Below are positions 53,142 through 57,015 of a stretch of DNA of 64,000 bases, one piece after another. Positions within the stretch are counted from its first letter, which is position 1. Each line of letters starts with the position of its first letter. The position numbers and the translations under genes were made by a program. Origin of the DNA: Tamlana sp. I1 (GTDB lineage Bacteria; Bacteroidota; Bacteroidia; Flavobacteriales; Flavobacteriaceae). Below the pieces are notes generated by a model. It worked only from the letters and a program-made list of their open reading frames with translations. It was not told the DNA's origin and did no database searches. The stretch is taken from assembly GCF_015355625.1 (NCBI RefSeq), contig NZ_JACLAF010000007.1, positions 124,001-188,000 on the forward strand. The letters run 5' to 3'.

Positions 53142-54272
53142 ATGAATGATAAAAAAACACCTAGAAAAGGTTTCGTATTTAAAGAATATGAAGCACCTTT
53201 TCAATCGCCATTCGATAAACTTTTTGATATCTTCAAAGAATTAATCACGCATACTTCGGGCGATTTTGATGAAGCCATAAGTTGGCTACGCGAATTGGAT
53301 GTGGAATACAAATTAACAACTCCAGAATATACAGTTGATGATTTTATTGAAGACCTAAAAAAGAAAGGGTATATCAAAGAAGAAATCGATCCCGACGGAA
53401 AAAGCGGTGGTGTAAACATCACGGCAAAAACCGAACGCGCCATTAGGCAACAAGCCCTCGATCATATTTTTGGAAAAATAAAACGCAGCGGACAAGGCAA
53501 TCATAAAAGTAAAAGCCCTGGCGTTGGTGACGAGCATACAGGCGATTTTCGAAACTATCAATTTGGTGATGCTTTAGATAAAGTGTCCATGACCGAAAGT
53601 TTAAAAAATGCGCAAATTAGTCACGGTATTGGTGATTTTACCTTATCGGAAGACGATTTAGTTGTTGAAGACACATTGCATAAATCGCAAATGAGCACCG
53701 TACTCATGATCGATATTAGCCACAGTATGATTTTATACGGTGAAGATCGTATTACTCCAGCCAAAAAAGTAGCGATGGCATTAGCCGAACTAATTACTAC
53801 ACGCTACCCAAAAGACACTTTGGATATTTTGGTTTTTGGAAACGATGCTTGGCAAATCGAAATTAAAGATTTACCCTATCTTAAAGTAGGACCGTATCAC
53901 ACCAACACTGTCGCCGGACTACAACTTGCTATGGATTTGTTACGACGAAAACGAAATACAAACAAACAAATTTTTATGATAACCGATGGGAAACCAAGTT
54001 GTTTAAGACTTCCCGATGGCGAGTATTATAAAAACAGCATGGGGTTAGATGGATATATTGTTAATAAATGTTACGCCATGGCGCAGCAAGCCAGACGTTT
54101 GCATATTCCCATAACCACTTTTATGATTGCTCAAGACCCGTATTTAATGCAATTTGTTAGAGAGTTTACCCATGCCAACCAAGGCAAAGCTTTTTATACA
54201 GGCATTAAAGGATTGGGGGAAATGATTTTTGAAGATTATGAAACGAATAGAAAGAAACGGATAAGGGGATAA
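53142..54272 (+). CDS. VWA domain protein
   Basis: The protein has 376 residues. After an N-terminal helical and charged region (1-180), a von Willebrand A domain (about 184-370) shows the MIDAS motif D-I-S-H-S (Asp191, Ser193, Ser195) and the later T-N-T-V-A-G-L and I-T-D-G-K-P-S. There is no signal peptide, so it is cytoplasmic. It pairs functionally with the MoxR-type AAA+ protein (55549), the usual partner, which forms a chaperone-like complex inserting metal or activating an enzyme. The pair is interrupted here by a 1.1-kb repeat array with a DUF559 gene. The target is unknown. Confidence 0.88.
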   Translation: MNDKKTPRKGFVFKEYEAPFQSPFDKLFDIFKELITHTSGDFDEAISWLRELDVEYKLTTPEYTVDDFIEDLKKKGYIKEEIDPDGKSGGVNITAKTERAIRQQALDHIFGKIKRSGQGNHKSKSPGVGDEHTGDFRNYQFGDALDKVSMTESLKNAQISHGIGDFTLSEDDLVVEDTLHKSQMSTVLMIDISHSMILYGEDRITPAKKVAMALAELITTRYPKDTLDILVFGNDAWQIEIKDLPYLKVGPYHTNTVAGLQLAMDLLRRKRNTNKQIFMITDGKPSCLRLPDGEYYKNSMGLDGYIVNKCYAMAQQARRLHIPITTFMIAQDPYLMQFVREFTHANQGKAFYTGIKGLGEMIFEDYETNRKKRIRG

Positions 54273-54376
54273 GTTAGAAGTTAAAAGTTAGAAGTTGAAA
54301 GTTAAAAGTAGGCGATAGGCTTTAAGTTTTATGCTGTAAGCAATATTCGAAACCAAAAAAACAAAAACCAAAAACT
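54271..54376. repeat. Heptad tract after the VWA gene
   Basis: Six clear 7-bp units (AAGTTAG, AAGTTAA, AAGTTAG, AAGTTGA, AAGTTAA, AAGTAGG) start at the A-A of the stop codon. A degenerate continuation with the same 7-bp phase (C-G-A-T-A-G-G, C-T-G-T-A-A-G, CAAAAAC x2) runs up to the first array unit. The array looks inserted into or next to this tract. Confidence 0.8.
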
Positions 54377-54605
54377 AAATTGAACTTGTTCCTTCCTTAT
54401 TTTAAGGGAGGTAGGTTCTGATGACAATCAGAAATCGGAGGGATAAAAGAAAACCGAAGGAATAAAAAACATATTAAATAAAACACCTCTTTCTTTTGAT
54501 TTTTTGTTAAAATCAAAATTCATTCTCCTCTTAAATTTAAGAGGAGAGCAAGTAGAATAAAAAGAGTCAAATCTAAAGAGAATTATCGAAGGTAAACTAT
54601 AATAC
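54377..54605. repeat. Palindromic array, short unit 1 (229 bp)
   Basis: This unit begins AAATTGAACTTGTTCC. Palindrome A is CCTTCCTTA-ttt-TAAGGGAGG (one G.U-type pair), followed by a TTCTGAT-type hairpin. After a short spacer, palindrome B is CTCCTCTTAAA joined directly to its complement (22 bp perfect). It repeats at exactly 229 bp in unit 2. There is no gene, but the spacer aligns with the start of the DUF559 gene of unit 3 followed by a jump to the sequence after its stop codon. Confidence 0.9.
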
Positions 54606-54834
54606 AAATTGAACTTGTTCCTCCCTTATTTTAAGGGAGGTGGGTTCTGATGATAATCAGAATTCGGAGGGATAAAAGAAAATCGAAGGAATAAAAAACA
54701 TATTAAATAAAACACCTCTTTCTTCTGATTTTTTGTAAAAATCAAAATTCATTCTCCTCTTAAATTTAAGAGGAGAGCAAGTAGAATCAAAAGAGAAAAA
54801 GCAAAAGAGAATTATCGAAGTTAAACTAAAATAC
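54606..54834. repeat. Palindromic array, short unit 2 (229 bp)
   Basis: This is a direct copy of unit 1 with perfect palindrome A (CCTCCCTTA-ttt-TAAGGGAGG), hairpin TTCTGAT-gata-ATCAGAA and perfect palindrome B. It differs from unit 1 by scattered substitutions only. Like unit 1 it lacks the 336 bp that carry the nuclease gene in unit 3. Confidence 0.9.
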
Positions 54835-55399
54835 AAATTGAACTTGTTCCTTCTTTATTTTATGTGAGGTGGATTCTGATGACAATCAGAATTCGGAGGG
54901 TTAAAACAGAATATATGAAGCAAAAAATACACACTTTAAAACATCTCAAAGAGAAACGTTCTGATTTAAGACAATCATTAACTCCAGCCGAAGCATATTT
55001 ATGGAAACACTTAAAATCAAGACAGTTTGAAGGAAGAAGATTTAACCGGCAGCATAGTATAAAAAATTACATAGTTGATTTTTATTGTTCAAAAGAAAAA
55101 TTAATAATAGAGTTAGACGGTGAAGTTCATAATAATGCGTTAGCTCTAGAAAAAGATAATGAGCGAACAAGGTTTTTAGAAGGGCTAGGATTTACAGTAA
55201 TTAGATTTGAAAATAAAATGGTGTTTGAAAATTTAGCATCTGTTTTTATGGAGATAAAAGATAATTTTAAATAAAACACCTCTTTCTTTTGATTTTTTAG
55301 TTAAAATCAAAATTCATTCTCCTCTTAAATTTAAGAGGAGAGCGAGTAGAATCAAAAGAGTAAAATCAAAAGAGAAATACCGAAGTTAAACTAAAATAC
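54835..55399. mobile_element. Palindromic array, full unit 3 with DUF559 gene (565 bp)
   Basis: This unit has the same left and right parts as units 1 and 2, with 336 extra bp in the middle holding the DUF559 gene (54915-55274). The right side carries TTTGATTTT/AAAATCAAA and the 22-bp palindrome B. Palindrome A has decayed here (CCTTCTTTA...TATGTGAGG). The structure suggests the full-length element from which the short units derive. Its mobility is inferred. Confidence 0.7.
54915..55274 (+). CDS. DUF559 (PD-(D/E)XK-type) nuclease-like protein
   Basis: This 119-residue protein reads L-R-Q-S-L-T-P-A-E-A-Y-L-W-K-H-L...F-N-R-Q-H-S-I near the N-terminus. The catalytic-type core is Y-I-V-D-F-Y-C (Asp55) and L-I-I-E-L-D-G-E-V-H (Glu66, Asp68, His72), and it ends G-F-T-V-I-R-F-E-N. 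DUF559 belongs to the Vsr-like restriction endonuclease fold. A GTG-started frame opens at 54864 but would translate the palindrome region, so the ATG at 54915 is preferred. The gene is enclosed in a repeat unit; the stop TAA is within the sequence shared with the short units. Enzymatic activity is unproven. Confidence 0.88.
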   Translation: MKQKIHTLKHLKEKRSDLRQSLTPAEAYLWKHLKSRQFEGRRFNRQHSIKNYIVDFYCSKEKLIIELDGEVHNNALALEKDNERTRFLEGLGFTVIRFENKMVFENLASVFMEIKDNFK

Positions 55400-55470
55400 A
55401 AATTGAACTTGTTCCTCCCTTATTTTAAGGGAGGTGGATTCTGATGATAATCAGAATTCGGAGGGATAAA
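55400..55470. repeat. Palindromic array, truncated unit 4
   Basis: Only the left end of a unit is present: AAATTGAACTTG, perfect palindrome A (CCTCCCTTA/TAAGGGAGG), the TTCTGAT hairpin and GGAGGGATAAAA. The sequence then diverges. The array therefore ends with a left terminus, as expected if the ends recombined or one end was left behind by excision. Confidence 0.85.
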
Positions 55471-55500
55471 ATAATATAAATGGTGTAAAACACACAAGAG

Positions 55501-55542
55501 TAAGCACTAAAGGCTAAAAGCAAACAGCCAAAAGCAAAAAAG
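55501..55542. repeat. Degenerate heptads before the AAA+ gene
   Basis: Six 7-bp units (TAAGCAC, TAAAGGC, TAAAAGC, AAACAGC, CAAAAGC, AAAAAAG) end 6 bp before the ATG at 55549. Together with the tract at 54271-54376 they flank the palindromic array on both sides. Confidence 0.6.
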
Positions 55543-55548
55543 AAAAAC

Positions 55549-57015
55549 ATGAAAATAGAAACTATAAAAACACTTGGGGATTTAAAAAAGTCAGGCTATC
55601 AGTCGAAGTCGATAAAGGACGAATTGAGGACTAATCTTATTCAGAAAATAAAAAACAAAGAAACCACTTTTGAAGGTGTTCACGGTTATGAAAACACCGT
55701 GATTCCTGAGTTGGAACGCGCTATTTTATCGCGACATAATATTAATTTATTAGGATTACGTGGTCAGGCAAAAACCAGATTGGCGCGTTTAATGTTAAAT
55801 TTGTTAGACGAATACATTCCGTATGTTTCAGGTTCCGAAATTAATGACGACCCTCTAAAACCCATTTCCAGATTTGCTATAGAATTGATTAAAGAAAAAG
55901 GAGATGATACGCCCATTTCATGGTTGCATCGCAGTGAACGTTTTGCTGAAAAATTAGCCACTCCAGATGTTACTGTAGCCGATATTATTGGCGATGTAGA
56001 CCCAATAAAGGCTGCCAATTTAAAATTGAGTTACGCCGATGATCGTGTGATTCATTACGGCATGATTCCTAGGGCGAACCGCTGCATATTTGTTATTAAT
56101 GAGTTACCCGATTTACAAGCTAGAATTCAAGTGGCTTTATTTAATATTTTGCAAGAAGGCGATATTCAAATTCGCGGTTTTAAACTGCGATTGCCTTTAG
56201 ATATTCAGTTTTTGTTTACCGCAAACCCTGAAGATTACACCAACAGAGGCAGTATTGTAACACCATTAAAAGATAGAATAGGTTCGCAAATTTTAACGCA
56301 TTATCCTATAAATATTGAAACAGCAAGACAAATTACAGAGCAGGAAGCCAGGGTGGTTGAGAGTCAGAAATCCATGGTTGTTGTGCCAGATTTAGCAAGA
56401 GATTTGTTAGAGCAAATTGTTTTTGAGGCTAGAGAAAGCGAGTATATAGATGCTAAAAGCGGTGTAAGTGCACGTTTAAGTATTACAGCCTTAGAAAATT
56501 TATTAAGTACTGCCGAACGTCGGGCTTTAATGACTGAAGAAACACATACCACGGTGCGTTTATCAGATTTTGTAGGCATCATACCTTCAATTACAGGAAA
56601 GGTTGAATTGGTTTACGAAGGCGAGCAAGAAGGAGCAGCTTTGGTGGCTTATAATTTAATAGGAGAAGCTGTTAAAAGTTTGTTTCCAGAGTTTTTCCCT
56701 AATATAGAGAAACTTCAAAAACAAGAAGAAGAAGGCGAGTATGACGATATTGTGTCTTGGTTTTTCAATTTGAAGGAAGGTTTTGAATTGCTTGACGATT
56801 TAAGAGATAAAGAATACATGCGTTTACTCGATTCGGTTTCGCCTTTAGATGATTTATTAGCGAAATATCAACCTAATTTATCAAAAGAAGACAGCTATTT
56901 TGTGAAAGAATTTGTGCTTTGGGCTTTAGTTGAATTTAAACAATTAAGCAAACACAGATTTACCGAAGGACTTCAATTTAAAGATCCGTATGGAAGTTTT
57001 ATTAGTGGAATTTAA
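55549..57015 (+). CDS. MoxR/magnesium-chelatase-type AAA+ ATPase
   Basis: The protein has 488 residues. Walker A G-L-R-G-Q-A-K-T (69-76), Walker B and sensor region F-V-I-N-E-L-P-D-L (about 182-190, with Glu), L-F-T-A-N-P-E-D-Y (sensor 1) and an arginine-finger-like R-I-G-S-Q match the chelatase/MoxR group. The long N-terminal and C-terminal helical extensions are typical of the Bacteroidetes form. It should power the VWA partner encoded at 53142. A 1.3-kb region with the DUF559 array separates the two genes, so co-transcription may be reduced. The client protein is unknown. Confidence 0.88.
   Translation: MKIETIKTLGDLKKSGYQSKSIKDELRTNLIQKIKNKETTFEGVHGYENTVIPELERAILSRHNINLLGLRGQAKTRLARLMLNLLDEYIPYVSGSEINDDPLKPISRFAIELIKEKGDDTPISWLHRSERFAEKLATPDVTVADIIGDVDPIKAANLKLSYADDRVIHYGMIPRANRCIFVINELPDLQARIQVALFNILQEGDIQIRGFKLRLPLDIQFLFTANPEDYTNRGSIVTPLKDRIGSQILTHYPINIETARQITEQEARVVESQKSMVVVPDLARDLLEQIVFEARESEYIDAKSGVSARLSITALENLLSTAERRALMTEETHTTVRLSDFVGIIPSITGKVELVYEGEQEGAALVAYNLIGEAVKSLFPEFFPNIEKLQKQEEEGEYDDIVSWFFNLKEGFELLDDLRDKEYMRLLDSVSPLDDLLAKYQPNLSKEDSYFVKEFVLWALVEFKQLSKHRFTEGLQFKDPYGSFISGI

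What the first reader, a model, noticed from the sequence alone, without database searches (positions are those of the whole stretch)
54377..55470. DUF559 nuclease gene inside a palindromic repeat with apparent non-autonomous copies
Four head-to-tail units start at 54377, 54606, 54835 and 55400. Units 1 and 2 are exactly 229 bp. Unit 3 is 565 bp: the same sequence plus 336 bp holding a 119-residue DUF559 nuclease gene. The short units keep a degenerate version of the gene's first codons (GAAG..AAAAAA.CA) and then jump to the sequence at its stop codon, as an internal-deletion derivative would. Two perfect palindromes (A: CCTCCCTTA-ttt-TAAGGGAGG; B: 22 bp, CTCCTCTTAAA plus its complement) flank the gene. 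REP/RAYT elements and MITEs are precedents for nuclease plus mini-element pairs; I know of no such description for DUF559.
Basis: partly seen in the sequence, partly recalled or inferred. Interest (0 to 1): 0.82.

Follow-up and report, generated by a model that had tools for sequence, protein, structure and literature searches.

The report
Nuclease gene between DNA-hairpin repeats
A small bacterial nuclease of unknown job (DUF559) sits between special DNA hairpins, here and in many other bacteria, and whole hairpin-nuclease-hairpin blocks are found dropped into other genes, which suggests a mobile element behind a common repeat whose spread has had no known agent.

Summary
The array is real: three units (229, 229, 565 bp) plus a partial fourth. 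Unit 3 is a short unit plus 336 bp holding a 119-aa DUF559 gene. One correction: palindrome A next to the gene is degenerate.

The pattern is general. Of 145 DUF559 loci from three samples, 128 have a pyrimidine/purine hairpin with a G-rich tag within 360 nt, 72 on both sides; windows 1 kb away score 13 of 273. The tag usually mirrors the purine arm (192 of 236 hairpins; 28 shuffled), the anatomy of published intrastrand-triplex repeats (PIT/TM), near which a 2015 study of E. coli found no mobility gene. Hairpin similarity tracks protein identity across genera.

DUF559 blocks with hairpin sequence lie in frame inside recG, leuS and metH; relatives show empty recG and leuS, and gene-deleted recG, the window's own genome among them. 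Gene-less hairpins occupy the window's orthologous spacer in three other genera. Closest solved folds: a gonococcal homologue, then homing endonuclease I-Bth0305I.

Best reading: a RAYT/REP-like mobile module with an unrelated nuclease. Association and insertion are well supported; that the nuclease drives movement is inferred.

The parts
54377..54605 (.). Unit 1, 229 bp, hairpin pair A+B without gene
54606..54834 (.). Unit 2, 229 bp, hairpin pair A+B without gene (215/229 identical to unit 1)
54835..55399 (.). Unit 3, 565 bp: hairpin A (degenerate), DUF559 gene, hairpin B
55400..55478 (.). Unit 4, partial: hairpin A and its tag only
54915..55274 (+). DUF559 nuclease gene, 119 aa, ATG start; modelled fold EDxHD/Vsr-like; D55, E66, D68, H72, D81 present
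   Evidence: PF04480 3.1e-35; AF2 pLDDT 86; Foldseek 3HRL, 3R3P, 1VSR; conserved residues
54391..54411 (.). Hairpin A, unit 1 (one mismatch in the palindrome)
54620..54640 (.). Hairpin A, unit 2 (perfect: CCTCCCTTA-TTT-TAAGGGAGG)
54645..54662 (.). Second stem of A (TTCTGAT-GATA-ATCAGAA) between hairpin and tag
   Evidence: sequence
54666..54671 (+). Tag GGAGGG of A, mirror image of the purine arm end GGGAGG (candidate triplex third strand)
   Evidence: general mirror test
54849..54869 (.). Hairpin A, unit 3, directly upstream of the gene, degenerate
55414..55434 (.). Hairpin A, unit 4 (perfect)
54524..54547 (.). Hairpin B, unit 1, perfect 24-nt palindrome
54753..54776 (.). Hairpin B, unit 2
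55318..55341 (.). Hairpin B, unit 3
54484..54493 (-). Pyrimidine tag of B, unit 1 (minus strand GAAAGAGGTG), candidate third strand
   Evidence: sequence; not tested on its own
53142..54272 (+). Left neighbour, VWA-domain gene; the spacer to the right neighbour is the insertion site
55549..57015 (+). Right neighbour, AAA ATPase gene

Best explanation
The locus is a mobile-element-like module: a small EDxHD/Vsr-fold nuclease gene (DUF559) lying between hairpins that could fold into intrastrand triplexes, plus gene-less copies of the same hairpin pair that look like internal deletions. Most likely the nuclease recognises its own hairpin type, possibly when single-stranded at replication forks, and cuts at or beside it or at a target resembling the hairpin foot; repair copies either the whole module or the short hairpin pair into the cut. 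Hairpin pair plus gene would be the autonomous form, hairpin pairs alone the non-autonomous form, and head-to-tail arrays would grow by recombination or slippage. Shown: the association, the mirror-tag anatomy, block insertion into genes and spacers, gene-deleted alleles, correlation of hairpin and protein similarity. Inferred: that the nuclease cuts hairpins or targets and causes the movement.
For: Association: 128 of 145 loci either side and 72 both sides, against 13 of 273 windows 1 kb away; control gene loci 9 of 892 windows. Mirror tag: 192 of 236 hairpins, 28 shuffled, 88 direct-repeat. Mobility: in-frame DUF559 blocks in recG (5), leuS (3) and metH (3), of which 8 of 11 have a hairpin on the N side, 8 on the C side, 6 on both (host genes identified). 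recG in 30 genomes read: full block 5, gene-deleted remnant 3 (all of the window's genus, its own genome included), other short inserts 4, 33-residue empty form 18. Window site: spacer 1276 nt here, 839 nt with another DUF559 module in G036, 1-209 nt in 27 of 29 genomes read, three of these 27 holding gene-less hairpins. Hairpin-arm similarity against protein identity across genera: Mantel r 0.31, 0 of 2000 permutations. DUF559 genes stand between operon partners such as sufB|sufC and paaD|paaZ. Fold shared with homing endonuclease I-Bth0305I.
Against: No biochemical or transposition evidence. No target-site duplication identified. Exact hairpin types are low-copy in relatives. The hairpin-protein correlation could be joint inheritance, and by a cruder measure (sharing any arm 6-mer) same-genome pairs of different DUF559 genes do as well as cross-genus relatives (6 of 9 against 102 of 152). 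No hairpin was detected at 7 of 50, 2 of 18 and 8 of 77 loci (some of the last visibly carry one). Of 11 in-gene blocks, one metH block (L034) has no detected hairpin. Hairpin tags have no fixed direction relative to the gene. The 16 related copies in this genome lie in a larger element with its own inverted ends, so another enzyme may have moved them. Two of 10 genomes with the GTCCCCT hairpin had no DUF559 hit, and 6 of 13 DUF559 genomes lacked the G/C-rich motif tested.
Confidence: 0.6

Rival explanations
1. Free-standing homing-endonuclease gene: DUF559 cuts the empty allele of a fixed site (VWA-AAA spacer, recG loop, leuS loop) and is copied in by recombination; the hairpins are only tolerated borders or terminators and spread passively.
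For: Same fold as I-Bth0305I; insertion at the same recG and leuS positions and the same VWA-AAA spacer in different genera.
Against: Hairpins flank most DUF559 genes in all three samples, occur without the gene at the same spacer, and correlate with protein identity; homing alone does not explain dispersed hairpins.
Confidence: 0.17
2. Passenger model: triplex hairpins are moved by another system or by replication errors, and DUF559 genes are harmless cargo or landing pads inside hairpin-rich spacers.
For: Hairpins occur without a nearby DUF559; in this genome the dispersed hairpins lie in a frame with separate inverted ends; the 2015 TM paper explains instability by replication stalling (PMC4666352).
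Against: Two-sided flanking in 72 of 145 loci, in-frame block insertion and the hairpin-protein correlation are not expected of a passenger.
Confidence: 0.13
3. Vsr-like DNA-repair enzyme: DUF559 processes mismatches or hairpins at these unstable repeats for the host.
For: Vsr is a structural neighbour; Caulobacter VsrA, which contains a DUF559 domain, is proposed as a Vsr-type mismatch repair enzyme (PMC12907096, passages read).
Against: Patchy presence (46 of 149 relatives), copies with in-frame stops and insertion inside genes fit a selfish gene better.
Confidence: 0.06
4. Local tandem duplication only: an ordinary spacer repeat in which one copy captured or kept a nuclease gene.
For: The 229-bp unit is confined to one locus of this genome.
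Against: The same architecture recurs around DUF559 genes in other genera, families and phyla and at the orthologous spacer without the gene.
Confidence: 0.04

Closest known systems
Intrastrand triplex repeats (PIT / TM motifs; Holder et al. 2015, PMC4666352)
   Same: Pyrimidine-purine hairpin followed by a mirror-image purine third strand; type A and type B motifs, five times in inverted pairs in E. coli K-12; linked with genome instability. One of the 23 listed K-12 copies (no. 9) lies between fabI and the DUF559 gene ycjD.
   Different: The window version is A/T-richer and its linker holds a second stem. The paper reports no mobility gene near the E. coli motifs, and its main text has no mention of DUF559, ycjD or endonuclease.
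REP elements with RAYT (TnpA-REP), REPINs (partly recalled)
   Same: Palindromes flanking a single nuclease gene; gene-less pairs elsewhere; arrays; mostly between genes.
   Different: RAYTs are HUH tyrosine enzymes of the IS200/IS605 type; this protein has a Vsr/EDxHD fold and no such domain hit.
CGTC-tagged REPs (Di Nocera et al. 2013, PMC3733652)
   Same: Short palindromes, often in inverted dimers, said to lack a dedicated transposase; found in Bacteroidetes and alphaproteobacteria among others; some lie inside genes.
   Different: Stems of 8-9 bp that begin with AT, with CGTC and CCA ends; no third strand in the passages read. Treated as a parallel, not as the same family.
EDxHD homing endonucleases (I-Bth0305I)
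   Same: Catalytic fold; insertion at the same positions of host genes in several genera.
   Different: No self-splicing intron or intein seen; bordered by hairpins; 119 aa, without room for the long DNA-binding tail described for I-Bth0305I (PMC3943268, passages).
Vsr endonuclease / Caulobacter VsrA
   Same: Fold; VsrA carries a DUF559 domain.
   Different: Vsr acts on T:G mismatches and works with a cytosine methylase; that link was not looked for here.
MITEs (general knowledge)
   Same: Short gene-less derivatives with imperfect inverted ends of a gene-carrying unit.
   Different: No target-site duplication found; the ends carry hairpins.

Membership tests
Intrastrand triplex (PIT/TM) repeat | Pyrimidine-rich 5' arm / purine-rich 3' arm hairpin | tested here: met
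   Window A and B; 128/145 loci
Intrastrand triplex (PIT/TM) repeat | Mirror-image purine third strand close to the hairpin | tested here: met
   Window A: GGAGGG mirrors GGGAGG; 192/236 hairpins at >=6/7 vs 28 shuffled
Intrastrand triplex (PIT/TM) repeat | E. coli TM consensus sequence itself | tested here: not met
   Window hairpins are of the CCTCCCTTA and TCTCCTCTTAAA types; a slightly relaxed form of the consensus was found in 7 of 13 other DUF559 genomes
Intrastrand triplex (PIT/TM) repeat | Triplex forms physically | not testable with these tools
   Needs CD/NMR
REP/RAYT | HUH Y1 transposase gene between the palindromes | tested here: not met
   Pfam gives DUF559 and MTES_1575 only; closest folds are 3HRL, I-Bth0305I, Vsr
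REP/RAYT | GTAG tetranucleotide at the palindrome foot | not tested
   A GTAG occurs near window B (AAGTAGAA) but was not examined systematically
REP/RAYT | Gene-less palindrome pairs elsewhere | tested here: met
   Same spacer: pairs in G024 and G041, solo in G050; related element at 16 places in this genome; 40 and 14 TM copies in two other DUF559 genomes
CGTC REP | CGTC tag, 8-9 bp stem beginning with AT, CCA tail | tested here: not met
   By eye: window hairpins lack these; some relatives read GAC-GGAGGG (GTC on the other strand) without the AT stem start
EDxHD homing endonuclease | Catalytic fold and acidic/His residues | tested here: met
   3R3P Foldseek E 7.8e-5; D55, E66, H72, D81 invariant and D68 nearly invariant in 36 sequences; the residue-by-residue match to 3R3P was not inspected
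EDxHD homing endonuclease | Located in a self-splicing intron or intein | tested here: not met
   No Rfam family in 54200-55600; free-standing here. In the recG, leuS and metH cases no intein or intron search was run
EDxHD homing endonuclease | Cleaves the empty allele | not testable with these tools
   Biochemistry
Vsr mismatch endonuclease | Coupled to a cytosine methyltransferase | not tested
   Methylases of this genome were not searched
MITE / insertion sequence | Target-site duplication | tested here: inconclusive
   The recG insert has imperfect inverted ends AAGCCCTC...GAGAGGCTT (read by eye in G004) but no clear duplication

The most novel reading that the evidence does not exclude
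Standalone DUF559 genes are the missing autonomous partners of the widespread intrastrand-triplex (PIT/TM) repeats: a class of transposable module, present in many phyla, in which a 120-residue Vsr/EDxHD-fold nuclease recognises folded triplex hairpins at both ends and spreads itself and gene-less hairpin pairs, including in frame into conserved genes.
Probability: 0.42. Interest if true: 0.95.

Novelty: new variant of a known kind. Interest (0 to 1): 0.84.

Why it matters
[quoted passage not shown] coli copies (PMC4666352). DUF559 is still named a protein of unknown function in Pfam. This work links the two across phyla, supplies insertion, empty and gene-deleted alleles, and points to a simple test in laboratory E. 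coli, whose ycjD is a DUF559 gene beside a listed triplex repeat. If right, it adds a second, unrelated enzyme class to the REP/RAYT idea and explains a source of short in-frame peptide inserts in bacterial proteins.

Tried and rejected
Tandem-duplication-only reading: rejected because the same architecture recurs in other genera and phyla and the orthologous spacer holds gene-less hairpins. Known RNA: no Rfam hit in 54200-55600. Plasmid origin: no DNA match to the array in PLSDB. Defence system: PADLOC hits only weak. A strict A pattern (GGAGGTGG..ACGGAGGG) is rare, 4 of 149 genomes, so sequence patterns under-report; structure-based detection was needed. CGTC-REP membership was considered and dropped on the published description. 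Literature: ten searches. In these listings I saw no paper linking DUF559 with triplex or palindromic repeats; most listed papers were not opened and only open-licence PMC papers are held. Papers seen: passages of PMC12907096, PMC12817139, PMC9403480, PMC3943268, PMC8836110; abstract plus passages of PMC3733652; abstract, passages, sections 12 and 15 and the first part of section 20 of PMC4666352; the rest only in listings.

Limits of the counts: of 73 places listed, 68 were covered by 67 loci and five were not fetched; of these 67 loci 50 were standalone, 16 long-frame (fused), 1 truncated. Of 43 plasmid-collection records 18 were fetched. The AAA-gene control gave 1 of 58 flanks with the strict detector and 2 of 58 with the triplex one; those two are the G036 locus with its own DUF559 module and the G024 spacer with gene-less hairpins. 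An earlier run cut away 60 nt next to the plasmid and genome-set genes and gave 11 of 18 and 68 of 76; I replaced it because annotated starts were being trimmed. With the strict detector alone the three samples give 40 of 50, 14 of 18 and 43 of 77. The triplex detector hit 4 of 100, 6 of 36 and 17 of 152 shuffled flanks (relatives, plasmid, genome set), so part of its signal in the last two is composition; the distant windows are the better control. The likely-intergenic baseline had just 20 windows (0 hits). The clade tree has few well-supported forks, so vertical descent versus repeated insertion at the window site is undecided. metH: no empty allele was read.

Full report
OBSERVATION. The four-unit array is as described apart from one point. 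Units 1 and 2 are 229 bp; unit 3 is the same sequence with 336 extra bp and holds a 119-aa gene at 54915-55274, DUF559 by Pfam (3.1e-35). Palindrome B is perfect in all three units. The A palindrome nearest the gene is degenerate; perfect A copies lie in units 2 and 4. After A comes a second stem and then GGAGGG, a mirror image of the purine arm end GGGAGG. The unit occurs at one locus of the 4.04-Mb genome, and this is the only DUF559 match there.

THE PATTERN IS GENERAL. Among 149 relatives, 46 (this genome included) have a match to the protein. Eleven close homologues (L011-L021, 51-67% identity) lie in other genera; I printed their flanks, and hairpins of the same build are visible at each, although the bases differ and in two (L011, L016) only upstream. 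I then measured three samples with one detector (C/T-rich hairpin arm plus G-rich tag within 34 nt, 360-nt flanks): relatives 43 of 50, plasmid-collection loci 16 of 18, genome-contig loci 69 of 77; both sides 26, 7 and 39. Windows about 1 kb away scored 4 of 97, 2 of 36 and 7 of 140; Fisher p (near versus far) 1.6e-23, 2.0e-7 and 6.3e-34. Windows from 82 AAA, recG and leuS loci of the relatives scored 9 of 892; by position four of the nine lie at the G024 spacer or the recG remnants of G002 and G003 discussed below. Record titles and taxonomy lines of loci with a hit cover Bacteroidota, Pseudomonadota (alpha, beta, gamma), Deinococcota, Cyanobacteriota, Chloroflexi, Planctomycetes, a Balneolaceae, a Geobacter and a Kapabacteria bin; a Nitrospirae locus and two Synechocystis plasmid loci scored none.

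WHAT THE HAIRPINS ARE. A frequent form in other phyla is CCCTCTCCC-loop-GGGAGAGGG-TTA-GGGTGAGGGG. A literature search on such strings led to Holder et al. 2015 (PMC4666352): intrastrand triplex motifs, a hairpin plus a third purine strand, in more than 260 genomes, types A and B, 23 copies in E. coli K-12. The authors write that around the E. [quoted passage not shown] In my loci the tag matches the mirror image of the purine arm (at least 6 of 7) in 192 of 236 strict hairpins, against 28 with shuffled flanks and 88 for a direct repeat. So the window hairpins look like an A/T-richer member of that architecture. Number 9 in the paper's table (1,351,204-1,351,239) lies between fabI and ycjD, which is annotated as a DUF559 protein; a second G/A-rich hairpin overlaps the end of ycjD.

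HAIRPINS AND PROTEINS CO-VARY. Over 40 loci with strict hairpins, arm similarity correlates with protein identity between genera (Mantel r 0.31, 0 of 2000 permutations); mean Jaccard is 0.258 for 152 cross-genus pairs of at least 50% identity, 0.116 for 501 cross-genus pairs below 45%, and 0.119 for nine same-genome pairs of different DUF559 genes. Against this, the share of pairs with any common arm 6-mer is the same, 67%, for the first and last groups. Six homologues with the CCTCCCTT/CCCCTCTT pair type (the window's own being variants) form one supported clade (97/95). This may reflect recognition or joint inheritance.

INSERTED BLOCKS, EMPTY SITES, GENE-LESS COPIES. Several long-frame DUF559 hits are in-frame insertions into conserved genes: recG (5), leuS (3), metH (3), host genes identified with NCBIfam for one locus of each; an N6 methylase host was identified with Pfam, other host names are my recognition only. 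Of these 11 blocks, 8 have a hairpin (arm of 5 or more) on the N side of the domain, 8 on the C side, 6 on both, and one (metH, L034) on neither. For recG I read 30 genomes: 5 have the full block (G001, G004 and G005 of the window's genus, G011 and G066 of other genera); 3 of the window's genus, including the window's own genome, keep a 9-12 residue remnant with sequence of the left hairpin and no gene; 4 have other short inserts; 18 have the 33-residue empty form. The full insert's ends in G004 are imperfect inverted repeats (AAGCCCTC...GAGAGGCTT). In leuS the block sits at one loop in three genomes, and a fourth (G007) holds a DUF559-like insert that looks decayed, without hairpin-coded ends, while most of the other genomes read have a 26-residue loop. 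At the window locus the spacer between the VWA and AAA genes is 1276 nt here, 839 nt in G036 (which carries another DUF559 module there), and 1-209 nt in 27 of 29 genomes read, the remaining one being unreadable because the gene match was truncated. Three of those short spacers contain gene-less hairpins: G050 a solo B element almost identical to the window's, G024 and G041 hairpin pairs. In other phyla annotated DUF559 genes stand between operon partners such as sufB and sufC or paaD and paaZ.

DISPERSED COPIES. In this genome a related element is found at 16 places; most copies printed carry an A-type hairpin that shares AACTTG(C/T)TCCTCCCTT with the window unit, inside a frame of roughly 225 bp with inverted ends AGACC(C/T)TTCAGG, some copies being partial. 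Whether this nuclease served them is unknown. CCTCCCTT..AAGGGAGG was found in 10 of 149 genomes, all 10 with a DUF559 match, but in 7 of the 10 a copy lies beside the gene, so this is not independent evidence. GTCCCCTNNAGGGGAC was found in 10 of 89, 8 of them with some DUF559. A slightly relaxed G/C-rich TM motif occurs in 7 of 13 genomes reached through DUF559 loci, 40 copies in a planctomycete and 14 in a Methylomonas, with none for the reversed control. Copy numbers are thus modest.

THE PROTEIN. The model of the window protein (pLDDT 86) matches 3HRL, an endonuclease-like gonococcal protein (Foldseek 3.5e-9; 5.5e-19 by sequence), then the catalytic domain of homing endonuclease I-Bth0305I (7.8e-5), and more weakly Vsr (1.4e-2). 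D55, E66, H72 and D81 are invariant and D68 nearly so in 36 sequences. One paper already calls a DUF559 gene a member of the EDxHD homing endonuclease family (PMC9403480, passage). [quoted passage not shown]

MECHANISM. Most likely the nuclease recognises its hairpin type and cuts there or at a similar target, and repair copies module or short pair (0.6). The steps of cutting and copying are inferred. Rivals: plain homing gene with incidental hairpins (0.17), passenger (0.13), repair enzyme (0.06), local duplication (0.04).

COMPARISON AND NOVELTY. It works like REP/RAYT, but is not a RAYT: the enzyme has no HUH-type domain hit. It has the fold of an EDxHD homing endonuclease but is free-standing here. 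The repeats meet the structural definition of triplex motifs, not the E. coli consensus. I rate it a new variant of a known kind; proof that triplex hairpins are the nuclease's substrate would make it categorically new.

Noticed in passing
G000 contigs outside the window; loci L119-L134: A MITE-like element of about 225 bp with ~36-bp inverted ends (AGACC[C/T]TTCAGGTTTTTAAAACATA..GTGTTCGGAA) and an internal A-type hairpin, at 16 places, some partial.
   Followed up: partly
L150:628-660 and 1068-1100, L151:814-847: Solo ~33-nt palindromes AGACCTTTCAGGTTTT(T)AAAA(A)CCTGAAAGGTCT, like the outer ends of that element, occur without it.
   Followed up: no
L300 and L295/L304 (leuS loop): The LeuS loop that takes DUF559 modules also holds other short in-frame peptides (..SENDGHAELVEAP....VIASETKQS..) that look like translated repeats of other families.
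   Followed up: no
L298 (G007 leuS): A DUF559-like insert in LeuS with the ExDG..H motif changed (EFEG) and no hairpin-coded peptides: apparently a decayed or domesticated copy.
   Followed up: no
L013, L094: DUF559 genes with one in-frame stop but hairpins kept on both sides.
   Followed up: no
L172, L174, L168, L166: DUF559 genes standing between sufB and sufC, between NAD(P) transhydrogenase genes, between paaD and paaZ, and between a GatB/YqeY-domain gene and dnaG in annotated records.
   Followed up: partly
L149:1050-2141: One copy of the MITE-like element carries about 870 extra bp with two small open frames (61 and 115 codons) between its ends.
   Followed up: no
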